Source: a bacterium
GTDB taxonomy: Bacteria; Bacteroidota; Bacteroidia; B-17B0; Aurantibacillaceae
Length of the DNA stretch: 38,014 bases
Assembly (NCBI GenBank): GCA_029945625.1
Contig: JAQSCW010000013.1
Coordinates: forward strand, 1-38,014
Direction of reading: 5' to 3'
The notes beneath the pieces are model-generated. The model did no database searches. It saw nothing but the letters and a program-made list of their open reading frames with translations, and was not told the origin of the DNA. Below, in pieces: positions 1,829-15,270 of the stretch. Position 1 is the stretch's first letter; each line of letters starts with the position of its first letter. Made by a program: the position numbers and the translations under genes.

Positions 1829-3691
1829 TTAATTTGGAAAGAAACCTTTTCTAACACCGTTCGCTTCATTTGAAAATTGGATATAATTAATTTTACTAAT
1901 TACATCGGCTGGGGGAATTTTATTATCTAAAATTATTATTTGCCTGTCGTTTTTTACTTTCGCCAAATCTTTAAAAAATAATTCTTGCATATCGGGAGTA
2001 ATCTCGTCATCCTTTTCACGCTTTTGATTATTATGATAGGTTGTCAATGGAGAGTCAAGTACAATAATTCCGGAGTGGGGTTTCGATTTTTCAATACAAT
2101 AATCAAGAAGTCCGAAAACAAAAGCTGAATAGGACAATGCCCTTACACCTTTCCCATGACTATTTCGACCTCTACCTGAAATTATTAAATCAAATATTTT
2201 GTGTTTATCGTTAAATTCAACTGACGTTAATCCTGGAAACTTCCACGCTTTAAGGAATTTTTCTACATGTTCCGAAAATGATTTTAATATTGTGTATCCT
2301 AAATCAACTTTCGCTTCCTCTGGTTTCGATTTTGATTTTAGTTCTTTTTCTAACCCTTCTTTGTCAAGAAATAATTTTGTTATATCGGTTTTCGCAGAAA
2401 GTATTTCCTGTTCAATTTTATTTTGATTTATTAATTGACTAATCTGCGTTTGAAAATTTTGCTGTAATGGCAGTAGCTCAGAATTTAGTTCCTTATTGAC
2501 AACAGCCAACTCCTTTTCCATTTTCGTAATTAATACATCGTTAATAGTTTTATCACGCTCGGTAGTTATAATAGTTGCGTTTAAATCTTCTAATTTGAGT
2601 CCTATTTTTCTCCCTTCAATTTTTACCGACTCTCCGATTGCCTTATTTTCTATGTTAGTTGCCAAGCATTTAAGGTGTTCTTCATCCATGTGAGTACCAC
2701 AAATAGGGCAATCCTTCGTTATCAATTGCTTAAATAAAAATTCGCCTTCAATAATAAAAGTCAATCTATTTAAGTCATTTTTATAATGATCACGCAATAA
2801 ATAAAATCTTTTTAAAATTTCATTGTTTTGTAAATTAGAAGACTTTAGTTTTTGTAATTCGTTAAAGTCTACCTCTCTTTTAGATGTCAATTCTTCTATG
2901 CGTTTTGTTGAAGTCTCAAGTTTTTCTAACAATTTTGAAACTTGAATATTAATTTCCTCAGACGTAAATTTTGATGTTGAATTCTGTAAAGTTTCAATTG
3001 CTTTGTTTTTGGAAAGCACTAAAGACTCTATAAATTCCATTTTACCTTTTATCCTACTTTCAAAGACCTTTTTTTCTTCTTTTTCTACAAGCTCATTGTC
3101 AACATTTTCGGTAAGCAAATATCTAAACGCAGACTTTTCAACCGTAAAATCAAGAAAATTACTCATAGAGAAATAGACAGGAGAGCCTTCTGTTATTATC
3201 CGACTTTCATCAATTAATGATAGCTGAGAGATATCTCTGAAGCTTAATTTTCTTGTTTTATTCGATGCATTCGTTTTGAGAGAAACATCTTTCACTCCCA
3301 TTAGACCAAGAAGAAACTCCGATATATTCTCTCCATTTAATGTTGCATTTTTTTCTCCTAAAACAGTTTTCGGTGATGTGCTGTATTTTTCATACACGGT
3401 TTGTGTAACACTTGCTTTTGATGGAGTTTTTAAATTTCTATAAATTGTAAAAACTCTTTTATCATCTGTTTTTATTTGTAAGTAAGCCTCGGAATATCCC
3501 ATTGATTCAGGAATATCCACTTTTGGACAATTAGCAGCACCGAGTAGGTAATCAATACATTGGTACACATAAGATTTTCCGGTGTCTGAAGAACCCACAA
3601 TCAAGTTAGCACCTTTAGAAAATTTCAACGAAGCTTCCTTAACACCTTGTCCTGTAACAATTAATTTTTCTATGTAAAATCTTTGATTCAT
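1829..3691 (-). CDS. ABC-3C system ATPase, Rad50/SMC-like AAA ATPase
   Basis: This 620-residue protein has the layout of a Rad50/RecN-like ABC ATPase. Walker A (GSSDTGKS) is at residues 33-40. A long charged coiled coil follows and is broken by a zinc-hook-like CPIC at residues 328-331. The C-terminal half has an ABC-signature-like segment (RALSYSAFVFG) and a Walker B/D-loop (IIVLDSPL) near residue 545. In ABC-three-component systems such an ATPase is encoded with a small middle component and a nuclease- or effector-bearing protein, and these systems are considered anti-mobile-element conflict systems. Its start lies 2 nt after the middle-component stop, so the genes are almost certainly co-translated. 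The ATPase class is clear. The ABC-3C assignment depends on the neighbours as well as the sequence. Confidence 0.82.
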   Translation of the reverse strand: MNQRFYIEKLIVTGQGVKEASLKFSKGANLIVGSSDTGKSYVYQCIDYLLGAANCPKVDIPESMGYSEAYLQIKTDDKRVFTIYRNLKTPSKASVTQTVYEKYSTSPKTVLGEKNATLNGENISEFLLGLMGVKDVSLKTNASNKTRKLSFRDISQLSLIDESRIITEGSPVYFSMSNFLDFTVEKSAFRYLLTENVDNELVEKEEKKVFESRIKGKMEFIESLVLSKNKAIETLQNSTSKFTSEEINIQVSKLLEKLETSTKRIEELTSKREVDFNELQKLKSSNLQNNEILKRFYLLRDHYKNDLNRLTFIIEGEFLFKQLITKDCPICGTHMDEEHLKCLATNIENKAIGESVKIEGRKIGLKLEDLNATIITTERDKTINDVLITKMEKELAVVNKELNSELLPLQQNFQTQISQLINQNKIEQEILSAKTDITKLFLDKEGLEKELKSKSKPEEAKVDLGYTILKSFSEHVEKFLKAWKFPGLTSVEFNDKHKIFDLIISGRGRNSHGKGVRALSYSAFVFGLLDYCIEKSKPHSGIIVLDSPLTTYHNNQKREKDDEITPDMQELFFKDLAKVKNDRQIIILDNKIPPADVISKINYIQFSNEANGVRKGFFPN

Positions 3692-3693
3692 AA

Positions 3694-4200
3694 TTATCCT
3701 CTTATAAGCGATTCATAAATAAATTCTCCGCCCCAATTTGGGATATTGTTCTCCACTATTGTGTTGAGTTTTTCATCTGAGTATTCTGCAAATTGACCTT
3801 TAATCCATTTACTTATTTCTATTAATTTTTTTGAGTATTCATTCTCCTGTAATTCAATAAATTTTTTAGTAAGCTCATTGGATTTATATTTAATTCCATC
3901 CGCAGAAAAAACGATATCAATCAACTCTTTACTTCTCATTAGAGCCATCGCATCTTTTAAAATAAGAGGCTTGATAATAATTTGAGCCGATCTGTGAGGA
4001 ATAGGTGGATGCAGACTGGTTGGTCCATTAGGGAAATCGCTTGAATTCAGCAAAAAATAATCGTAAATAACTAATCTATTAAGATCAACTTCAACAGGAG
4101 ATATTCCATTTAAAATATAAAGAGTTCTAAAACCAATTTCTAAAGGCGAATTAAAAACGTTCGCATTCCGAGTTTCAAATATGTTACTTAAATTTTCCAC
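3694..4200 (-). CDS. ABC-3C system middle component
   Basis: This is a 168-residue protein with no catalytic motif that I recognise. The N-terminal segment NVFNSPLEIGFRTLYIL, followed by a short helical domain with LVIYDYFLLNSSDF and LHPPIPHRS, resembles the small middle-component family (MC2-like) that links ATPase and effector in ABC-three-component systems. The position supports this: the start overlaps the end of the upstream nuclease-fold gene by 13 bp, and the stop lies 2 bp before the ATPase start. In this family the middle component is thought to bridge the other two proteins. The subfamily number is from memory and uncertain; the three-gene arrangement is the stronger evidence. Confidence 0.72.
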   Translation of the reverse strand: MENLSNIFETRNANVFNSPLEIGFRTLYILNGISPVEVDLNRLVIYDYFLLNSSDFPNGPTSLHPPIPHRSAQIIIKPLILKDAMALMRSKELIDIVFSADGIKYKSNELTKKFIELQENEYSKKLIEISKWIKGQFAEYSDEKLNTIVENNIPNWGGEFIYESLIRG

Positions 4201-5288
4201 GACAATTTATTTTCATTAACTAAATGGTGGCAAATGCCTTGCTTATCATGAATGCTTATGGTTACTGTTAAAGGATTAACTGTAATGCTCAGAAGTGTGC
4301 TGTGATCAAGAACACTTGTTAATCTTTTGAAAGCATTTTCATAAGTAGCTATTACCTTTGAATATACCGCAGTATAAATTTCGTCTTTTAAAGCTTCAAA
4401 TGCATTTGAATCGGGAGGTAGATTATCTCTTTCAAATTGTTTTAATGTTTCTACAGAATAAAAATTCTTTCTTTGAATATCGAAATGAACCATATAAGTG
4501 CCATGTTTAGATAATTCATCAACTGAATTAATTTCTTGGCTAATCTCCTCTCCATATGCTATCAACAATTGCTTAACATATCTCATTTCCTTTTCAGGAT
4601 CAGCAATACTTGGAACAACAGTATCTTCTCTGTACTTTTTTAGTCCACCACCAAAATGATATAGGTGGTAGCTTGTCTGACCATGTTGTTCAATTAATTC
4701 ATGAGGCTCAACTGATTTTATTATTGAGAAATCAAAATCCTCAACATATTTTTTGAAATCCCCTTCAAGTTTGATTTCGCCCGTCCCTTTAGTTGTTATT
4801 TTTTTTAAAACATTCTTGTCCCAGTTCCCAATTAATGCTGCTTTAAGTTTAATTGGATCGTCTATCATATCCCCAAGTTTTGTTCCCACTCCCTCTTGAC
4901 TTACGATGTAATAATTTTGAGGAATAGTATAATCTTTTATAAAAGTGTAGTAGCAAAGTTTTCCAAGTTCAACATAAAAATTTGTTGGGGTTAATGCATT
5001 ACCATAATGTTTACATTGGAAATTATCCCACTTCTTTTCGCTCAAATTAATCCATCCGATGACATCTCTTCCCTTATCCCCAGCAGCACCGCATCTTCTT
5101 ACTTTTTCATATTTTGTAGAGAGGTATTCGAATACCCATTCTGTTACAATTTCTTCAAATTCACTATCGTCTATAACAGCCAATCTTTGAATAGGTGTAA
5201 TAGATTTACCGTAAAGAATATCGTGATTAGATATCTTTGGTGTGCTTTTAGGTTTTAATATTTCAGTTGTATCAGTTTCTGTGGTCAT
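4188..5288 (-). CDS. ABC-3C system protein: restriction-endonuclease-fold N-terminus plus ABC-3C C-terminal domain
   Basis: This 366-residue protein has two parts. Residues about 40-130 look like a PD-(D/E)xK nuclease fold: an acidic helix (FEEIVTEW), then GRDV with D75, then QCK at 91-93, the spacing seen in Mrr-like enzymes. The C-terminal half (about 225-366) carries the pattern of the ABC-3C C-terminal domain, including VHFDIQRKNFYSVETLKQF and a following LKDEIYTAVYS helix. This would make it the effector that cleaves nucleic acid when the ATPase and middle component signal. The gene begins 118 bp downstream of the AAA+ gene and overlaps the next gene by 13 bp. Cleavage activity and target are inferred from the fold only. 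Confidence 0.75.
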   Translation of the reverse strand: MTTETDTTEILKPKSTPKISNHDILYGKSITPIQRLAVIDDSEFEEIVTEWVFEYLSTKYEKVRRCGAAGDKGRDVIGWINLSEKKWDNFQCKHYGNALTPTNFYVELGKLCYYTFIKDYTIPQNYYIVSQEGVGTKLGDMIDDPIKLKAALIGNWDKNVLKKITTKGTGEIKLEGDFKKYVEDFDFSIIKSVEPHELIEQHGQTSYHLYHFGGGLKKYREDTVVPSIADPEKEMRYVKQLLIAYGEEISQEINSVDELSKHGTYMVHFDIQRKNFYSVETLKQFERDNLPPDSNAFEALKDEIYTAVYSKVIATYENAFKRLTSVLDHSTLLSITVNPLTVTISIHDKQGICHHLVNENKLSWKI

Positions 5289-5405: not shown

Positions 5406-6464
5406 TCATACTAATTTCAGCCATCGATCAATTGTTTTTTTTGTTTTTCCTGTATTAAAAACCAAATCTCCTTGCTTTATTTTTTCGTAGTCGGGTAATG
5501 CAGCAATTGTTACTGCGTAATTTTTCATTAATGCTTTGTTGTAAGAATTGAAAGGCTGTGAAATATCAAATGTATTTGGCATTTCTATTTTTGATGTCAA
5601 ATTATATTTTTCAAAATCTGTTTTTACTAAATCAAAAATACTCTTCTCGTTAACAACTTCCTTAGATGTAGGATCAAAAACTGTTTTCCAATACGTCATC
5701 CATAAAATCGAAATTGATTGTAAGTCACGGAAATTACCATCAAGTGGTAATTGACTAAGCCATTTGTAAAACCCATTATCCGTTGGTGTTTCTATTCTTT
5801 CATACCCTTTTGATTTATTGAATTGCATTCCGTTCCAAACTAATTTAAAATCTGATTTTACGGTATCCCTCGTTTCAGAAATTGATGGTAGTTTGATTAC
5901 AAGTTGAGCGACACGATCATAAAAATCAGGAAGCAATGTGTCGTTTTTTAGTTCTGCTATTATTCTATTGCTTCCGAAAATTGGTCTCACTTCAACATAA
6001 TGTGTTTTATCCCCCATCATTTTCCTAAAAGAAAACTTTCCCTTTTCTTTACCGCTACCAACGGTTTGCAATGCAGTTAGTAGCTTGGATTTTACTCGAT
6101 CATCTAAATGATGTACTTCATCAAGAAATAAAATTCCCTTATCCGCTTGCTTCAATAATCCTTCGTGACCATTTGGATTAGCGCCAGTAAAGGCATTCTT
6201 CTCATATCCAAAAATATCTGCTTCGGCATTATCATTATTAAACGATGCACATGAGGCTTCAACAAATTTGTCGGTGTATAAAACTTTTTCTTCTTTTAGA
6301 AATTCACATATTTGTTTTATCCACCGTGATTTTCCTGTTCCTCTCTCTCCAATTACAAGAACGGAGAACCTTCCCGGATTGGACATGAAATGATAAAGCC
6401 TTTTCAAAGCATCTTTTCTAAGTGGATGCTGATCTTTTATTTCGTTTAGGAATTCTGCATTCAT
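5406..6464 (-). CDS. Sigma-54-activator-like AAA+ ATPase with C-terminal helix-turn-helix-like segment
   Basis: The protein has 352 residues from the ATG at 6464. It is an AAA+ ATPase of the bacterial enhancer-binding type: Walker A GERGTGKS at 39-46, a GAFTGA-type loop reading NAFTGA at 90-95, and Walker B GILFLDE at 110-116. There is no N-terminal receiver, GAF or PAS domain. The last 25 residues (KIKQGDLVF...KKTIDRWLK) could form a small DNA-binding helix-turn-helix. A TTG five codons upstream also keeps the frame open, but the ATG is better: it sits exactly 4 nt after a promoter motif. It heads the ABC-3C/hsdM operon and may be its regulator or a fourth component. NAFTGA differs from GAFTGA in its first residue, so sigma-54 contact is not certain. 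Confidence 0.8.
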   Translation of the reverse strand: MNAEFLNEIKDQHPLRKDALKRLYHFMSNPGRFSVLVIGERGTGKSRWIKQICEFLKEEKVLYTDKFVEASCASFNNDNAEADIFGYEKNAFTGANPNGHEGLLKQADKGILFLDEVHHLDDRVKSKLLTALQTVGSGKEKGKFSFRKMMGDKTHYVEVRPIFGSNRIIAELKNDTLLPDFYDRVAQLVIKLPSISETRDTVKSDFKLVWNGMQFNKSKGYERIETPTDNGFYKWLSQLPLDGNFRDLQSISILWMTYWKTVFDPTSKEVVNEKSIFDLVKTDFEKYNLTSKIEMPNTFDISQPFNSYNKALMKNYAVTIAALPDYEKIKQGDLVFNTGKTKKTIDRWLKLV

Positions 6465-6468
6465 AGGA

Positions 6469-6476
6469 TAAAGATA
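6469..6476 (-). promoter_or_regulatory. Promoter -7 element of the defence operon (leaderless arrangement)
   Basis: The minus strand reads TATCTTTA, then TCCT, then ATG at 6464. TAnnTTTG is the Bacteroidota -7 consensus; here the last base is A. Because transcription starts about 5-7 nt after this motif, the mRNA would begin at or next to the start codon. Confidence 0.55.
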
Positions 6477-6488
6477 CAATTATCTAAA

Positions 6489-6528: not shown

Positions 6529-6604
6529 ATATCAATTATATAGTTACTTTAAAAAGTACTGGCATAGATTGTGAAATTACATAGACACAAACAAAATTCT
6601 ACAA

Positions 6605-6907: not shown

Positions 6908-9211
6908 ATGAAAATAGTAAAAATCATTCATGGGTATCCTCCCCTTTATAATGCAGGATCAGAGGTTTATAGTCAATCCATCTGCGAAGAGTTATCAAAG
7001 ACAAATCAGGTATATGTTTTTACAAGAGAAGAAAATCCTTACCTGCCAGATTTCACAATCAGAAAAGAAAAAATAAATGAAAATCTTGAGGTGTTTTTTA
7101 CGAATATGGCTCAAGGTAAAGACGGATTTAAGCATAAAGAATTGGACTCCATTTTTTCAAATCTATTGAATGAAATAAATCCCGATGTAGCTCATGTTGG
7201 ACATTTAAATCATCTTTCTATTGGGTTTATTGATGTATTAAAAAGTAAAAATATTCCAATTGCGTTCACGCTTCATGACTTTTGGTTAATGTGTCCTCGT
7301 GGTCAATTTTTACAGAGAAATTTTGGCAACACAAATCATCTGCAATTATGCGACAAACAGGAAAACACGAAATGTGCTACCAACTGCTACAATGCGTATT
7401 TCACAGGGCAAGAAGACAATAAGGACTCCGATATTTCTTTTTGGAGTACTTGGATAGGTAACCGAATGAAGGAAACAAAAGAAATAACAAATAAGGTGGA
7501 CATATTTATTGCCCCTTCAAATTATCTCAAGGCTCGTTTCGTTAAAGAATTTGGTGTTTCAGAAACTAAAATTCAATATTTAGATTATGGTTTCCCATTG
7601 CATTATTTAACTCCAACAGAAAAGAAAGAAGATACACAATCCTTCACTTTCGGGTATATAGGTACGCATATACCTGCAAAGGGAGTTAACCTTTTAATTG
7701 AAGCGTTTTTGAAATTAAAAGGAAAAGCTGTTTTAAAGATATGGGGATGGAAAGATCAAAATAATACCAAAACCTTAATCGATAAAGCAAGGGTATTAGG
7801 ATTACCAATTGAATTTAAAGGGGAGTATGTAAATAAAAATCTTGCCGATGAAGTATTTTCTCAGGTAGATTGTATTGTTGTTCCTTCTATTTGGGGAGAG
7901 AATTCTCCTTTGGTAATTCATGAGGCGCAAGCTTGCCACATCCCTGTTATCACAGCAAACTATGGAGGAATGGCAGAATATGTCGAACATCAAGTTAACG
8001 GTTTGTTATTTGAACATAGAGATTCGATTAGTCTTGCAGAACAAATGCAATGGGCAATTGAAAACAAAAGTGTAATGAGCGATTTTGGAAAGAAGGGTTA
8101 TCTGTTTTCAAACGATGGTAGTGTCCCTGAAATTAAAGAGCATTGCAACGAATTAGTAAAAATATATCAAAGCTTACAAAAGAAAAAAACTACTGACTCA
8201 CTTTGGAGAATTACAATCGATACTAATCCTGAAGACTGTAATTTAAGTTGTACAATGTGTGAAGAGCATAGCCAGTTTAGTAAATACATTGACACTCTTT
8301 TTAAAGAAACAGGAGTTAAAAGAAGGAGAATGCCAGTTGAGTGGTTAGATAAAATATTTGCTCAAGCGAAAGAAATGGGAGTGAAAGAAATCATCCCATC
8401 TACAATGGGAGAACCACTATTGTATAAGGGATTTGAGCGAATATATGATTTAGCAAAAGAGCATCAAATTAAAATCAATTTAACAACAAATGGAACTTTT
8501 CCTAAAAAGTCCGTTAAAGAATGGGCTAAAATTATAGTGCCACAAACGAGTGATGTTAAGATATCGTGGAACGGTTCTACAGCAGAAACATCTGAAAAAG
8601 TGATGGTGGGAATCGACTTCGAAAATGCAATTGAAAATGTGAAGCAATTTGTTGAATATCGAAATTTACATTTTATAAATGGTGGCAATTATTGTCGGGT
8701 AACATTTCAATTAACCTTTATGCAAAATAATATGCACGAGTTGGCGGAAATCATTAAACTGGCTGCCCACCTTGATGTAGATAGAGTAAAAGGGCATCAT
8801 CTGTGGGCGCATTTCGATGAAATTAAAAACCTCTCTATGAAGGTTGATTCCCTCACTATTAAAAAATGGAATGTATTTGTAGAAGAAGCATACGCTTCAG
8901 CCGAACAGTATCGCAGACCAAATGGAGAAAAAGTATTACTTGAAAATATTTATCCACTTGAAAATATCGAAGAAAAAAACGTTCCTGAAAATTATGGCTG
9001 TCCATTTTTAAAAAAAGAAATATGGATTTCTGCTACAGGAAAAATATCGCCTTGTTGTGCGCCTGATAAGGAGCGAGATAAATTAGGTGACTTTGGAAAC
9101 ATTCAAGATCAAACCTTGCAAGAAATTGTTTCCGGTAACAATTACCAAAATCTTGTAGCCAATTATAAAAATCAAAATCTTTGTAAAACCTGTAATATGC
9201 GTAAACCATGA
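6908..9211 (+). CDS. Glycosyltransferase family 4 - radical SAM/SPASM fusion protein
   Basis: This 767-residue protein fuses two enzymes. Residues 1-420 form a GT-B glycosyltransferase of family 4: the N-terminal GYPPLYNAGSEVY loop, TLHDFWLMCPRG, and an E-x7-E motif at 331-339 that binds the nucleotide-sugar donor. Residues about 430-767 form a radical SAM enzyme with the CxxxCxxC iron-sulphur site at C444, C448 and C451 and a SAM-binding STMGEP segment. A C-terminal SPASM-type region follows (C698, C716, C717 and a terminal CxxC near 758-761). Its stop overlaps the next start by 4 bp (ATGA). SPASM enzymes usually modify peptides or amine-bearing substrates, so the pairing suggests both glycosylation and radical chemistry on one product. 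Substrate unknown. Separate GT4 and rSAM genes are common; this fusion looks unusual. Confidence 0.87.
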   Translation: MKIVKIIHGYPPLYNAGSEVYSQSICEELSKTNQVYVFTREENPYLPDFTIRKEKINENLEVFFTNMAQGKDGFKHKELDSIFSNLLNEINPDVAHVGHLNHLSIGFIDVLKSKNIPIAFTLHDFWLMCPRGQFLQRNFGNTNHLQLCDKQENTKCATNCYNAYFTGQEDNKDSDISFWSTWIGNRMKETKEITNKVDIFIAPSNYLKARFVKEFGVSETKIQYLDYGFPLHYLTPTEKKEDTQSFTFGYIGTHIPAKGVNLLIEAFLKLKGKAVLKIWGWKDQNNTKTLIDKARVLGLPIEFKGEYVNKNLADEVFSQVDCIVVPSIWGENSPLVIHEAQACHIPVITANYGGMAEYVEHQVNGLLFEHRDSISLAEQMQWAIENKSVMSDFGKKGYLFSNDGSVPEIKEHCNELVKIYQSLQKKKTTDSLWRITIDTNPEDCNLSCTMCEEHSQFSKYIDTLFKETGVKRRRMPVEWLDKIFAQAKEMGVKEIIPSTMGEPLLYKGFERIYDLAKEHQIKINLTTNGTFPKKSVKEWAKIIVPQTSDVKISWNGSTAETSEKVMVGIDFENAIENVKQFVEYRNLHFINGGNYCRVTFQLTFMQNNMHELAEIIKLAAHLDVDRVKGHHLWAHFDEIKNLSMKVDSLTIKKWNVFVEEAYASAEQYRRPNGEKVLLENIYPLENIEEKNVPENYGCPFLKKEIWISATGKISPCCAPDKERDKLGDFGNIQDQTLQEIVSGNNYQNLVANYKNQNLCKTCNMRKP

Positions 9212-9783
9212 TAGAAGCAATAAAAAAACACTCCGCTGATTCTAAATTGGCGTTGATTATTAGACATGCTGATAGAGATAAAATTCCGGCTGGATCATTC
9301 GGAAATGAAGTTTTACTTAATGCAATTGGAATTAATAACTCAATACGATTCGGAAAAGAATTAATGCAGCACAAAATAAACTGTATTTATACAAGCCCTG
9401 TTGAGCGGTGCGTTCAAACTGCTCATTATTTAAAAGATGGTTACAAAAAAGAAATTCCATTCCACACAACCAAAGCTTTGGGTGATCCGGGGCTTCATAT
9501 TGCTGACGATAAGTTAGCAGGAGAGTTTTTCTTAAAATATACTTTTGATGAAATGTATCGAAGATTTATGCTTGGAGAGACTATTCCGGGTGTGCCTTCT
9601 GCACAGGACTTCGAAACAAAGATGACTGAGTTTATCAAGCAAAATACAATTGAAGATGGCTTGACGATTTTTATCACGCACGATTCACTAATCGCTTTTT
9701 ATCACTATTGTTTAAATAAAGTTGTTTATACGAAGGAGAACTGGGTAAACTATTTATCAGGAATAATTTTAAAAGTTGAATAA
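9208..9783 (+). CDS. Histidine phosphatase family protein
   Basis: This 191-residue protein belongs to the histidine phosphatase (phosphoglycerate mutase-like) superfamily. The catalytic motif reads RHAD at residues 19-22, with the phospho-accepting histidine at 20. A second arginine is in TSPVERCVQTA, and a late catalytic histidine is in ITHDSLIAF. RHAD instead of the usual RHG or RHGE leaves substrate class open. The enzyme would remove a phosphate through a phosphohistidine intermediate. It overlaps the radical SAM gene by 4 bp and precedes the WG-repeat gene by 2 bp, so the three genes are tightly coupled. It may act on an intermediate made by the fusion enzyme, but nothing in the sequence names the substrate. 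Confidence 0.82.
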   Translation: MIEAIKKHSADSKLALIIRHADRDKIPAGSFGNEVLLNAIGINNSIRFGKELMQHKINCIYTSPVERCVQTAHYLKDGYKKEIPFHTTKALGDPGLHIADDKLAGEFFLKYTFDEMYRRFMLGETIPGVPSAQDFETKMTEFIKQNTIEDGLTIFITHDSLIAFYHYCLNKVVYTKENWVNYLSGIILKVE

Positions 9784-9785
9784 AT

Positions 9786-10487
9786 ATGAACTGGCAAGAA
9801 ATTAAATTATCTGAATGTGGAACATTCTTTAATTACCATGAAAAAAAAGCGTTTGATAAAACATTTATTAATGCACTCAAATTTCATGCGCCCGGATTTG
9901 CGCCCGTGCAAGATGAACTCGGATGGTATCACATTAATACAAACGGAGTAGAACTATATAAGCAACGCTATAAAAGAGTCTTCGGTTTTTATTGCAATCG
10001 GGCTGCTGTGATTAATGATGCTGGGTGGTTTCATATTGATGAAAGTGGTAATAGATTATGTACCGAAACTTACGCATGGATTGGTAATTATCAAGAGGAC
10101 AAATGTGCTGTTCGTGATTTGAATAATAACTACTATCACATTGATCCGTTAGGATATAGAATTTACAAGGAGAACTACTTTTATGCAGGGGATTACAAGG
10201 ATGGATATGCTTGCGTAAAATCAAATGATGGTTGGAAACATATTAATAGTAAAGGAATAGACCTCAACAATAAAAGATTCGAAAACTTAGGCATTTTTCA
10301 TAAGAACTATGCAACCGCAAGGGATTCAAATGGGTGGTTTCATATTGATAAAAATGGTTCGGAATTATATTCTTCACGTTATCATTCTATTGAGCCATTT
10401 TATAATGGTTTTAGTTTAGTTGAAGATTTCGATAAACGAAAATTGGTTATTGCCGAGTCAGGAGAAACAAATTATTTAGTTCCATAA
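9786..10487 (+). CDS. WG-repeat protein
   Basis: This 233-residue protein consists almost entirely of about five repeats of 36-40 residues with the pattern GW(Y/F)HI(N/D)xxGxxLYxxRY followed by an aromatic-rich strand. This is the WG (KWG) repeat, thought to form beta-strands in a propeller-like binding platform. The third repeat has N-Y in place of G-W and the fourth has GWKHI. There is no signal peptide or membrane segment, so it is probably cytoplasmic. It starts 2 bp after the phosphatase stop and is followed by a strong terminator, so it is the last gene of the operon. A role as a binding or scaffolding subunit is likely for the fold but unproven. Confidence 0.82.
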   Translation: MNWQEIKLSECGTFFNYHEKKAFDKTFINALKFHAPGFAPVQDELGWYHINTNGVELYKQRYKRVFGFYCNRAAVINDAGWFHIDESGNRLCTETYAWIGNYQEDKCAVRDLNNNYYHIDPLGYRIYKENYFYAGDYKDGYACVKSNDGWKHINSKGIDLNNKRFENLGIFHKNYATARDSNGWFHIDKNGSELYSSRYHSIEPFYNGFSLVEDFDKRKLVIAESGETNYLVP

Positions 10488-10513: not shown

Positions 10514-10545
10514 AACCCACGCAAATAGCGTGGGTTTTTTATTTT
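10514..10545 (+). terminator. Rho-independent terminator of the GT4-rSAM operon
   Basis: AACCCACGC (10514-10522) pairs perfectly with GCGTGGGTT (10528-10536) around an AAATA loop, and a T-rich tract follows. It begins 27 bp after the WG-repeat stop codon. Confidence 0.88.
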
Positions 10546-10895
10546 CATTCCTGAAAAAAAATCAAAAATCTTCTCAAAACATTTCAGAACAGATCGAGAA
10601 CGCTCAAGGCTCGAAAGAAAACAGAGAAAGCTTCCTAAAACATGGGGGTAGTTTTGCTTTGTGTTTTGTTATACCCCATATACCCCTGAATTAGACGATT
10701 CATAGCAGTATTTGCCATTGAGTATGGCACTTATATTTTGAACGTGCAAGTTTATTCCCTTGGTTTTTTCCCCTCAAAAAAAGAAAGTCGAATTCGCTAC
10801 CACGTTTCAAAACGTGTATCGAACTTGTCGTTAATTCCCTCAATTAGCGGTGACGATGGATTGGTAGTAGTTGATTTTAAAAGAAGGAAAGAGAA
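10546..10895. other. Intergenic region ahead of recombinase module 1
   Basis: No gene is visible in these 350 bases. They hold the upstream copy of the conserved recombinase-module box (10649-10810). An imperfect inverted repeat, ATGGGGGTA at 10643-10650 against TACCCCAT further on (about 10672-10679), brackets the first block of that box. A purine-rich ribosome-binding-like stretch (AAGGAAAGAG) lies just before the small ORF at 10896. Confidence 0.5.
10649..10810 (+). repeat. Conserved upstream box of recombinase module 1 (copy 1)
   Basis: Three blocks match the region ahead of the second recombinase in the same order and spacing: TAGTTTTGCTTTG at 10649-10661, a 40-bp core at 10714-10753, and GCTACCACGTT at 10796-10806. 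The core agrees with copy 2 at 38 of 40 positions, far better than the surrounding DNA or the genes. The core contains the small inverted repeat GCCAT-TGAGT-ATGGC and ends in AACGTGCAAGTTT. It may be a recombinase binding or attachment site, or a shared promoter/operator. Confidence 0.7.
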
Positions 10896-13200: not shown

Positions 13201-13355
13201 TAGTTTTGCTTTGCAAAATGTTTAACCTTTTAACCCAATAAAACCGATGATATAGACCAATTCGCCATTGAGTATGGCATTTAAATTTTGAACGTGCAAG
13301 TTTGTTTCCTGAATTTTTTCATTGGAAAAAAGATAGTTGGAATAGCTACCACGTT
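13201..13355 (+). repeat. Conserved upstream box of recombinase module 2 (copy 2)
   Basis: This is the second copy of the box described at 10649-10810: TAGTTTTGCTTTG at 13201-13213, the 40-bp core at 13264-13303 and GCTACCACGTT at 13345-13355. Distances between blocks match copy 1 to within 2 bp. The core differs only at two positions. Confidence 0.7.
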
Positions 13356-13629: not shown

Positions 13630-15236
13630 TGCAACCGAAAAGTTTAGAAAAATTTGCCCGAGGCAAAGTTCAGGTTGATGAACGAACGAATATGTGTGTT
13701 ATTTACACAAGGGTTTCAACTAAAGAGCAAGCAGATAATAATCTCAGTTTAGAAACTCAGCGAAAAGCTTGTGACCAATTCGCAATTAAAAATAACCTTA
13801 TAGTAAAAGGTCATTTTGGAGGAACGTACGAAAGTGCAAAAAATGATGAGCGAAAACAATTCAACGCTATGCTTTCTTTTGTGAAACGAAGCAAGGATAA
13901 AATCTCAACGATAATTGTTTATTCGGTTGATCGATTTTCTCGATCAGGAGGAAACGCAATTTATATTACAGAACAATTAAAAAAGCAAGGCGTGAATTTG
14001 CAAGCGGTAACGCAACCTTCAGACACTTCAACGCCAAGCGGAAAATTACAACAGAACATTCAATTTATTTTTAGTGAATACGATAACCAACTCCGAAGAG
14101 AAAAGTGTGTTGCCGGAATGAAAGAGGCAATGCAAAATGGAAAGTGGATTGGTAAAGCGCCTTTCGGTTATGAAATAGTTAGAAAGGAGGGGAAAAACGT
14201 AATTGTTTTGAACGAAAAAGGAAAAATATTTAAAAAAGCATTTGAGTGGAAAGCATTAGAAAAACTTTCATCGGCAGAAATTTCAAGAAAACTTTTTTTG
14301 TTTGGGCTAGAGATTGACGACCGAAGAATTGCTGAATTTATAAGAAACCCTTGGTATTGCGGATATATGTCGCACAAACTTTTAGAAGGTAAGTTAGTAA
14401 AGGGAAGCCATGAACCGTTAGTTTCACAAGAACTTTTTATCAAGGCAAATATTGAAGTTGATAAAAACGAACACGGTTATAGTTTGCATTTTGAAAATGA
14501 ACCAATACCATTGAAAGGATTTTTAAAATGCAACCAATGTGGGCAACCAATGAGAGGATATACGATAAAGCTTAAGAAAAATTTGCCTTATTATAAATGC
14601 AATACTAAAGGCTGCTGTAATAATAAAAGCGGGAAGGAATTGCACATTAGCTTCAAAAGTGCCCTACAATATTTGAAACTTGAATTGTTGCCAAATACGA
14701 GGGGCTTCCTGAAAAAACAGGTAATAGCCACCTACAATAAAATTAACCGGGAAAGGGAAGAAAATAAGGAAATTATGAGGGAACAAATCATGGAGGTCAA
14801 CCGCAAAATACAAAGGCTTGAAGAACGCTTCATGGTTGAAGAAATTACGCTTGATCTTTACCAAAAGTACGGCATCCTTTACAAAGAGGAATTAAAAAAT
14901 CTGGAGGAAGCTTACAATGAATCAGGAAAACGAGTGTCGAACCTTGAAAAATGCATTGATGTTGCTTTTGAAATGGCTGGAAACCTGCACCAAATGTGGG
15001 ATGTGCTGACTTTTAAGGATAGAGTGATAATGCAAAAAGTGGTATTTCCTCAGGGGATTTGGTATGATAAGAAAATAAACAGATGTCGAACCAATGAAGT
15101 AAATTTTGTAATCCGCTACTTCTCGCAGTTGTCTAAGGACGCAGCGGAAATAAAAAGCGGGGATTCAAACATGATATTTGAAATCCCCGCTTTGGTGGGA
15201 ACTACTGGGTTCGAACCAGTGACCCTCTGCTTGTAA
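13626..15236 (+). CDS. Large serine recombinase 2
   Basis: This 536-residue large serine recombinase has an extra N-terminal 25 residues before YTRVSTKEQ, with catalytic S31 and R29; VYSVDRFSR follows. The recombinase domain contains APFGYEIV and RNPWYCGYMSHKL, the zinc ribbon reads CNQCGQPMRG with YKCNTKGC, and a coiled coil follows (about 375-450). As in recombinase 1, the frame continues through a hairpin (15154-15193) into a tRNA in antisense. Its last residues, LVGTTGFEPVTLCL, are the complement of tRNA-Val and the stop lies near the anticodon. It is the gene closest to the tRNA, so it is the likely integrase of the island. It shares domains but not close identity with recombinase 1. Confidence 0.92.
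   Translation: MMQPKSLEKFARGKVQVDERTNMCVIYTRVSTKEQADNNLSLETQRKACDQFAIKNNLIVKGHFGGTYESAKNDERKQFNAMLSFVKRSKDKISTIIVYSVDRFSRSGGNAIYITEQLKKQGVNLQAVTQPSDTSTPSGKLQQNIQFIFSEYDNQLRREKCVAGMKEAMQNGKWIGKAPFGYEIVRKEGKNVIVLNEKGKIFKKAFEWKALEKLSSAEISRKLFLFGLEIDDRRIAEFIRNPWYCGYMSHKLLEGKLVKGSHEPLVSQELFIKANIEVDKNEHGYSLHFENEPIPLKGFLKCNQCGQPMRGYTIKLKKNLPYYKCNTKGCCNNKSGKELHISFKSALQYLKLELLPNTRGFLKKQVIATYNKINREREENKEIMREQIMEVNRKIQRLEERFMVEEITLDLYQKYGILYKEELKNLEEAYNESGKRVSNLEKCIDVAFEMAGNLHQMWDVLTFKDRVIMQKVVFPQGIWYDKKINRCRTNEVNFVIRYFSQLSKDAAEIKSGDSNMIFEIPALVGTTGFEPVTLCL
15149..15193 (-). terminator. Terminator of tRNA-Val, overlapping the recombinase 2 end
   Basis: AAAGCGGGGATT (15154-15165) pairs with AATCCCCGCTTT (15182-15193), with a further AAA/TTT pairing inside. 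On the minus strand a TTTTTATTT tract follows. It begins at the CCA end of the tRNA, so it would end the tRNA transcript. Whether it belongs to the chromosome or came with the element is not resolved. Confidence 0.75.
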
Positions 15237-15270
15237 GGCAGATGCTCTGAACCAGCTGAGCTAAGCTCCC
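15193..15270 (-). tRNA. tRNA-Val (anticodon TAC)
   Basis: The minus strand folds as a standard cloverleaf. The acceptor strand GGGAGCT pairs with AGTTCCC, the anticodon stem TCTGC/GCAGA encloses the loop CTTACAA with TAC at 34-36, and the T arm is ACTGG-TTCGAAC-CCAGT. An encoded CCA end follows. It marks the boundary between the A+T-rich island to the left and the core-like region to the right, and its 3' end is next to the large serine recombinase. Confidence 0.95.

What the first reader, a model, noticed from the sequence alone, without database searches (positions are those of the whole stretch)
6908..10487. Compact operon of a GT4-radical SAM fusion, a histidine phosphatase and a WG-repeat protein
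Gene junctions are 4 bp overlap and 2 bp apart, ending in a strong terminator, so the three are a unit. One polypeptide holds a complete GT4 glycosyltransferase (E331-x7-E339) and a complete radical SAM/SPASM enzyme (C444/C448/C451). I know of no described pathway with this set. It may build a modified glycan or glycosylated peptide, with the phosphatase finishing it and the WG-repeat protein binding it.
Basis: partly seen in the sequence, partly recalled or inferred. Interest (0 to 1): 0.68.

Follow-up and report, generated by a model that had tools for sequence, protein, structure and literature searches.

The report
Mobile sugar-chemistry cassette in defence islands
This stretch holds a mobile, switch-controlled set of enzymes that probably builds a small sugar-containing molecule in the cell, perhaps when it is under attack; its two hallmark genes also occur in a prophage of the insect symbiont Wolbachia, where their job is unknown.

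Summary
Confirmed: a GT4-radical SAM/SPASM fusion, a histidine phosphatase and a WG-repeat protein form one tight operon with a terminator.

Neither refutation test is met. Seventy related loci, nearly all Bacteroidota, carry the fusion or its two halves. WG is present in 66 of 71 loci (the other five end first); 59 of those 66 have a phosphatase, of one of three types exchanged at least 13 times on the tree. Methyl-, nucleotidyl- and carbamoyltransferases come and go.

A sigma-54 -24 element recurs upstream, two cassettes contain a prokaryotic viperin, and flanks are enriched for anti-phage families.

'No described pathway' is partly wrong: the fusion is 49% identical to WD0613 of Wolbachia's Undecim Cluster, whose next gene fuses this WG protein to an O-methyltransferase; syntenic homologues in Capnocytophaga and Saprospira were noted in 2015. 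The modular cassette, its control and its defence setting were not in the papers found.

Best reading: an inducible pathway for a small sugar-containing metabolite, phosphatase nearly obligatory, WG propeller as binding partner, probably defensive. Product unknown.

The parts
5406..6479 (-). RtcR-like sigma-54 activator (AAA+, GAFTGA, 357 aa), short form without the N-terminal CARF-like part
   Evidence: Sigma54_activat E 5.8e-27; PADLOC RtcR_PspF1 CARF_AAA_HTH E 2.1e-51, matching profile positions 165-416 of 468 only; a divergent relative lies within 1.5 kb of the fusion in 33 of 52 loci with at least 2.2 kb upstream
6560..6576 (+). putative sigma-54 promoter, TGGCATAGATTGTGAAA
   Evidence: TGGCA[CT] 45 bases before the small ORF; the element lies in the 90 bases before 10 of 19 small genes tested, 8 of them at -39 to -45, against 0.8 expected; RpoN encoded in the genome
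6605..6907 (+). small protein, 100 aa, probably part of the control module
   Evidence: Relatives upstream of the fusion in 23 loci, AAA gene found in 22 of them; no Pfam match of weight; model pLDDT 77, no clear fold
6908..9211 (+). GT4 glycosyltransferase fused to radical SAM/SPASM enzyme
   Evidence: Pfam; catalytic residues invariant; 70 further loci; 49% identical to its prophage WO counterpart, WD0613 in wMel
9208..9783 (+). histidine phosphatase, branch 1
   Evidence: His_Phos_1 E 1.4e-8; RHADR and THD motifs
9786..10487 (+). WG-repeat protein, predicted compact beta-propeller
   Evidence: WG_beta_rep; model pLDDT 95; propeller matches; seven invariant His in 41 sequences
10514..10536 (+). 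intrinsic terminator
   Evidence: 9-pair stem, T tail

Best explanation
A mobile, inducible biosynthetic cassette. A sigma-54 activator of the RtcR type switches on one transcript. The GT4 half transfers a sugar from an NDP-sugar of the host to a small, probably phosphorylated, acceptor; the radical SAM/SPASM half then changes the glycoside by radical chemistry; a phosphatase removes the phosphate and makes the route irreversible; optional modules methylate, carbamoylate or nucleotidylate the product; the WG propeller binds an intermediate or the product. The cassette most likely serves stress or anti-phage defence. Shown: gene set, conservation, module swapping, propeller prediction, regulator and promoter element, presence of viperin in two cassettes, enriched defence flanks. 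Inferred: order of steps, phosphorylated acceptor, ligand of WG, trigger, and defence role.
For: 70 loci. Constant ends, variable middle: fusion (or its halves) and WG in 66 of 71, phosphatase in 59 of 66 by three types (25 first HP type only, 27 tyrosine phosphatase only, 6 second HP type only, 1 with two), methyltransferase in 29 of 66, carbamoyltransferase in 6 of 66. At least 13 changes of phosphatase type among 57 loci and 15 of methyltransferase presence among 58 on the GT4 tree. The HCx5R motif is present in all tyrosine-phosphatase domains not cut by a contig end, also in 6 loci where the nucleotidyltransferase motif was not found by the pattern used. Regulator, sigma-54 element before 10 of 19 small genes against 0.8 expected, and RpoN. 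Viperin (E 1.3e-82, 2.9e-84) between the small gene and the fusion in L019 and the GT4 gene in L048. Flank genes: 89 PADLOC families matched by 112 proteins against 2 by 106 control proteins at E 1e-25. WG: family-specific His; the close WG family occurs in the same 2 of 395 genomes that hold the fusion. Radical SAM followed by phosphatase on a phosphorylated sugar nucleotide is known in polyoxin biosynthesis (PMC5365060, abstract read).
Against: No substrate, product or phenotype is known. Seven of 66 loci show no phosphatase: L046 (an inserted gene in its place), L051-L053, L068, L070, and L056, whose contig ends too soon after WG to exclude the second type. None was found beside the Wolbachia genes. 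The short regulator in this window lacks the CARF-like part, so the trigger inferred from RtcR may not hold here; 19 of 52 loci with enough upstream sequence lack a divergent activator. Nine of 19 small genes tested lack the -24 element, and per-locus promoter scores were mostly not significant. Defence enrichment is moderate: 24 of the 25 families listed match one protein each, and the tool does not give the number of distinct proteins. The phosphatase, WG and small protein match nothing in PADLOC, the fusion only as a weak radical SAM hit.
Confidence: 0.45

Rival explanations
1. A surface-glycan or exopolysaccharide tailoring set, as proposed for the Wolbachia relatives: GT4 and radical SAM make an unusual cell-surface sugar.
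For: GT4 is typical of surface polysaccharide loci (recalled); the Wolbachia cluster was read so (PMC9203015 and PMC4701759, passages).
Against: No flippase, polymerase or lipid-linked priming enzyme among the middle genes that were identified (some rare middle genes were not searched). Flank genes are enriched for defence families (glycan genes were not counted). The cassette WG proteins start without an evident signal peptide, whereas the six distant WG relatives read look like lipoproteins (by eye).
Confidence: 0.2
2. A RiPP-like pathway: the small ORF is a precursor that the radical SAM/SPASM enzyme modifies and GT4 glycosylates.
For: SPASM enzymes often act on peptides (recalled); a small ORF lies upstream of the fusion in 23 loci, in many of them touching or nearly touching it.
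Against: The small proteins follow the regulator (22 of 23 with AAA) and were found in 23 of 71 loci, 25 with a second look; two small ORFs at that position match DUF4258 weakly, below its cut-off; each of the two subfamilies is conserved end to end, with no variable core; no peptide-recognition domain was hit.
Confidence: 0.1
3. The WG propeller is itself the acceptor or carrier: the sugar is built on the protein, modified there and released by the phosphatase.
For: WG is the most constant partner and strongly conserved; in Wolbachia and Arsenophonus it is joined to the methyltransferase.
Against: No invariant Ser, Thr or Cys among the 33 invariant residues; Tyr69, Tyr116, Tyr195 and Tyr206 remain possible.
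Confidence: 0.12
4. An RNA or tRNA modification and repair set, given the RtcR-like regulator.
For: RtcR binds tRNA halves with cyclic phosphate ends (PMC7790460, passages); GT4-type enzymes glycosylate queuosine in animals (recalled).
Against: No RNA ligase, cyclase or RNA-binding domain was hit in the window's cassette; regulator far below the RtcR equivalog cut-off (112.9 against 650 bits).
Confidence: 0.1

Closest known systems
Undecim Cluster of Wolbachia prophage WO (WD0611-WD0621); related genes on Arsenophonus plasmids and, in print, on Rickettsia plasmids
   Same: UC3/WD0613 is the same GT4-radical SAM/SPASM fusion, 49% identical over its length; UC4/WD0614 begins with the same WG protein (46% to the window's, 53% to the nearest cassette's) and ends in an O-methyltransferase like that of 29 of 66 cassettes
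   Different: Undecim has NDP-sugar enzymes, PhyH dioxygenase, ABC exporter and two threonine-aldolase-like enzymes, none found in the window or the Bacteroidota loci; no phosphatase and no RtcR-like regulator of the cassette types found in L079
RtcR and RtcR-like CARF-AAA-HTH activators
   Same: Sigma-54 AAA domain with GAFTGA; 18 of 38 cassette regulators have 570 aa or more, and the one tested matches the CARF_AAA_HTH profile from position 70 on
   Different: The window's copy matches the AAA part only and is far below the RtcR equivalog cut-off
Prokaryotic viperins (pVip)
   Same: Radical SAM chemistry; two cassettes carry a pVip gene
   Different: The fusion's own radical SAM part is not a viperin: 31.6 bits against 275-280 for the true ones; SPASM present
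Polyoxin octosyl acid pair PolH (radical SAM) and PolJ (phosphatase)
   Same: Radical step on a phosphorylated sugar nucleotide, then dephosphorylation (abstract)
   Different: No sequence comparison made; an analogy of chemistry only

Membership tests
GT4 glycosyltransferase | GT-B donor domain with E-x7-E | tested here: met
   PF00534 E 6.1e-29; E331 and E339 invariant in 29 of 29
Radical SAM/SPASM enzyme | Cx3Cx2C plus SPASM cysteines | tested here: met
   PF04055, PF13186; C444 C448 C451 and five SPASM Cys invariant in 29 of 29
Histidine phosphatase branch 1 | RH motif and second catalytic His | tested here: met
   PF00300 E 1.4e-8; RHADR and THD
Undecim Cluster | GT4-radical SAM fusion neighbouring WG | tested here: met
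   in the window the phosphatase gene lies between them
Undecim Cluster | Remaining genes UC1, UC2, UC5-UC11 | tested here: not met
   tblastn at 1e-10 against the window and the loci held then (L001-L005 and L077 left out): UC2, UC5, UC7, UC8 hit only L080 (Arsenophonus plasmid); UC1, UC6, UC9-UC11 hit nothing outside L079
Prokaryotic viperin | Strong match to pVip profile | tested here: not met
   31.6 bits, partial, for the fusion; 275-280 bits for the separate pVip genes of L019 and L048
[quoted passage not shown]
   112.9 bits against 650
RtcR-like CARF-AAA-HTH family | CARF plus AAA plus HTH | tested here: inconclusive
   Window copy AAA only; long form L009 matches profile positions 70-453 of 468
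RiPP pathway | Precursor with leader and variable core, recognition element | tested here: inconclusive
   Small ORF conserved along its length; no such domain hit
Known anti-phage system in PADLOC | Cassette proteins match a system's profiles | tested here: not met
   Small protein, phosphatase and WG: no match; fusion only weakly to pVip
Nucleoside or aminoglycoside antibiotic pathway | Known scaffold enzymes and product | not testable with these tools
   No product data; no sequence comparison with such pathways was made

The most novel reading that the evidence does not exclude
A new class of inducible chemical defence: damage or phage attack, read by an RtcR-like activator, turns on a GT4-radical SAM engine that makes a cytoplasmic anti-phage glycoside, whose decoration is diversified by swapping phosphatase, methyl-, carbamoyl- and nucleotidyltransferase modules; Wolbachia and relatives share the engine (GT4-radical SAM plus WG) and have it wired to an exporter, to act in insect hosts.
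Probability: 0.3. Interest if true: 0.88.

Novelty: new variant of a known kind. Interest (0 to 1): 0.62.

Why it matters
It gives the Undecim Cluster, whose function is called unknown in 2025 (PMC12801941, passages), free-living relatives with a smaller gene set, some in cultured strains (record titles). If the defence reading holds, it would add a tailored small molecule to a field where viperin products are, to my recollection, among the few antiviral metabolites known in bacteria. The WG propeller with its repeated invariant histidines is a defined, testable partner of a radical SAM enzyme.

Tried and rejected
Glycosylated-peptide reading: the small ORF was aligned, modelled and searched and fits a regulator-linked protein better; its fold stays open. 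A viral home: the first IMG/VR scan with the window protein found no relative; with alignment A3 it gave two contigs, one a Bacteroidota-type cassette (L082), one high-GC with fusion and WG (L081). PDB sequence search with the WG profile: no match. Sigma-54 scoring per locus was mostly not significant alone; only the shared position of the -24 element is. That test used 19 of the 24 small genes of clusters 6 and 7; three of the 19 (L006, L010, L013) had alignment starts that are not ATG; the genes are related, so they are not independent. The long regulator searched at E 1e-70 in 395 genomes gave nothing and had no positive control, so it is not used. A viperin identity of the fusion and an Rtc operon were rejected by score. 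Tunicaminyluracil clusters came up in search listings; no sequence of theirs was fetched because one producer is a listed germ, so any likeness stays untested.

Limits of the counts: one search finds loci by near-exact peptide patterns of the window protein, so it favours close relatives; L034 and L035 are identical in GT4 and radical SAM, as are L030 and L031 (one search shows the radical SAM tree for both pairs); several loci end early. ORFs were called by a simple script, so starts and very small genes are rough: sm6 of L012 and L014 was seen only on a second look. The phosphatase and methyltransferase states for the tree counts were typed from the tables; L067, with two types, was entered as tyrosine type. 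The bootstrap of the GT4 tree had not settled, and the printed trees were cut in the middle. Defence control: 20 stretches from seven genomes; one of these (G237) holds a cassette elsewhere on its chromosome.
Full report
WHAT IS THERE. The three genes are as described. The fusion (767 aa) holds a GT4 glycosyltransferase (residues 17-398 by Pfam) and a radical SAM/SPASM enzyme (444-763). It overlaps the phosphatase gene by 4 bases, and the WG gene follows after 2 bases; a 9-pair terminator ends the unit. To the left lie a Lamassu system (LmuA E 5e-106, LmuB E 5e-150, LmuC E 1e-44) and a type I methyltransferase; to the right two large serine recombinases. The second recombinase gene ends inside a tRNA-Val (15193-15270), after which genes of ordinary cell upkeep follow. 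The cassette is therefore most likely part of a mobile island.

IS IT MORE THAN CHANCE. A scan of one genome per species found 70 further loci. The fusion's catalytic residues are invariant in 29 aligned sequences. In 71 loci including the window, WG is present in 66; in the remaining five the contig ends first (L048 shows a partial WG). GT4 and radical SAM are separate genes in about a third of the loci; starred branches of the GT4 tree force at least four changes between fused and split. In 395 genomes of the phylum, the fusion occurs in 2, and the close WG family (58-100% identity) in the same 2; twelve other genomes hold only distant WG proteins of 30% identity or less. Within the genus, 4 of 40 genomes have the fusion (one of them cut by a contig end). 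The spread is patchy, as expected of a mobile cassette.

CONSTANT ENDS, CHANGING MIDDLE. Between fusion and WG the genes vary: histidine phosphatase; a protein made of nucleotidyltransferase and tyrosine phosphatase; O-methyltransferase; carbamoyltransferase. A second type of histidine phosphatase sits just after WG in six loci. Of 66 loci with fusion (or halves) and WG, 59 have a phosphatase: 25 the first type only, 27 the tyrosine type only, 6 the second type only, 1 two types. Seven have none: L046, L051, L052, L053, L056, L068, L070. L046 has an inserted gene that looks like a transposase (by eye); L056 ends too soon after WG to exclude the second type. On the GT4 tree the phosphatase type changes at least 13 times among 57 loci and methyltransferase presence 15 times among 58. 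Shuffled labels gave 20-25 and 16-20 in the five draws printed for each, so the methyltransferase is spread almost at random over the tree. In six loci the nucleotidyltransferase motif was not found by the pattern used, or the domain is gone, while the tyrosine phosphatase motif is intact. A phosphatase thus seems to be the step that is needed, whichever fold supplies it. The cassette genes are packed with overlaps or gaps of a few bases.

THE WG PROTEIN. Its model is confident (pLDDT 95.0, pTM 0.83) and matches beta-propellers as a fold class (Foldseek best BamB, E 6.8e-9, TM-score 0.52 by query; VIA-align Z 8.1-10.9 in the 50 rows shown, rmsd 3.4-7.3 over 193-232 residues). These matches show a fold, not a function. 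Across 41 sequences including Wolbachia and Arsenophonus, seven histidines are invariant, five of them at the same place in successive repeats (49, 83, 118, 152, 186). In six distant WG proteins (from six of the twelve genomes) that place holds Tyr, Phe, Val or Ile and never His. A dedicated pocket of histidines is the natural reading; the model's coordinates could not be inspected.

CONTROL. A divergent RtcR-like activator lies within 1.5 kb of the fusion in 33 of 52 loci with enough sequence. Of 38 such genes, 18 have 570 aa or more and 20 are shorter; the long one tested matches the CARF-AAA-HTH profile (E 1.2e-76). The window's is short and lacks the sensor part. The element TGGCA[CT] lies in the 90 bases before 10 of 19 small genes tested (of 24), 8 of them at -39 to -45, against 0.8 expected (highest of 500 shuffles 4). 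The window has it at -45, and the genome encodes RpoN. RtcR itself is switched on by tRNA halves with a 2',3'-cyclic phosphate (PMC7790460, passages), and RtcR-like proteins unlinked to Rtc are often near restriction systems (PMC4012209, passages). The small proteins occur with the activator in 22 of 23 loci; the exception, L011, shows a partial activator at its contig end.

DEFENCE CONTEXT. A prokaryotic viperin gene follows the small gene and precedes the fusion in L019 and the GT4 gene in L048 (E 1.3e-82 and 2.9e-84). In L045 an AbiEi/AbiEii pair lies inside the cassette. In L018 a McrBC-type gene lies upstream; L022 and L037 have a member of the same cluster. Of 112 flank proteins from 29 loci, PADLOC gave matches to 89 families at E 1e-25, against 2 families for 106 proteins from 20 arbitrary places in seven genomes of the phylum. 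Several profiles describe one family, so the true number of proteins is lower; the tool does not state it.

THE WOLBACHIA LINK. Among 50,697 phage records the only ones with a match over at least 80% of the fusion are two of Wolbachia phage WO (49%), and among 72,556 plasmid records three Arsenophonus plasmids (49%). The WG protein gives one of the WO records and the same three plasmids, plus one distant Calothrix match. In wMel the fusion is WD0613/UC3 of the Undecim Cluster (PMC9203015, passages). The next gene, WD0614, is WG joined to an O-methyltransferase, as Baldridge and colleagues wrote in 2015 (PMC4701759, passages; the first author's name is recalled); they also list peptides of both proteins and note syntenic homologues in Haliangium, Capnocytophaga and Saprospira. 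The remaining Undecim genes are not found in the Bacteroidota loci. On both trees the Wolbachia, Arsenophonus and L081 sequences form one group apart from the other rows (long branches, so direction of transfer is open).

MECHANISM. A GT4 enzyme paired with a phosphatase recalls routes in which a sugar is transferred to a phosphorylated acceptor and the phosphate is then removed (sucrose-phosphate, trehalose-phosphate and mycothiol routes; recalled). The solved GT4 structures matched by sequence include a protein labelled Tll1590, which I recall as a sucrose-phosphate synthase. A radical SAM step on a phosphorylated sugar nucleotide followed by a phosphatase is established in polyoxin biosynthesis (PMC5365060, abstract). 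Methyl-, carbamoyl- and nucleotidyl-transferases, and in L067 an APH-type kinase, are usual decorators of small sugar-containing compounds (recalled). No exporter was recognised among the identified genes of the Bacteroidota cassettes, whereas Undecim has one; the product of the former may act inside the cell. The defence role rests on control, neighbours and viperin, not on a phenotype.

NOVELTY. The fusion and its pairing with WG were in print. The modular cassette with exchangeable phosphatases, its sigma-54 control, its viperin-bearing forms and its island setting were not in the papers found by nine searches of an open-access library, of which seven were opened, in part; subscription papers were not searchable.

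Noticed in passing
window 10710-10781 and 13260-13331: A 72-base direct repeat (82%) stands before each of the two small-ORF plus serine-recombinase units, which look like a duplicated module.
   Followed up: no
window 15193-15270: tRNA-Val overlaps the 3' end of the second serine recombinase gene and separates the island from upkeep genes: probable integration site.
   Followed up: partly
window 1829-5288: Lamassu system (LmuA, LmuB, LmuC) next to the cassette.
   Followed up: partly
L019:9128-9988 and L048:9144-10013: Prokaryotic viperin embedded in the cassette, directly before the fusion (L019) or the GT4 gene (L048).
   Followed up: yes
L045:1439-3045: AbiEi/AbiEii pair inside the operon between radical SAM and phosphatase, followed by two further genes not identified.
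   Followed up: partly
L067:9000-19500: Enlarged cassette with class II aldolase, APH-type kinase and what look like further radical SAM genes (the last by eye and weak similarity).
   Followed up: partly
L017, L022, L037 upstream of the fusion: A short conserved ORF (46-47 aa in L017 and L022, within a 73-aa ORF in L037; the L017 copy with weak Ifi-6-16 similarity) near a DUF4258-like protein in the activator-to-fusion gap.
   Followed up: no
L081:7863-11165: High-GC contig of the viral collection with fusion and WG but none of the other cassette families: a branch grouping with Wolbachia and Arsenophonus, outside the Bacteroidota rows.
   Followed up: partly
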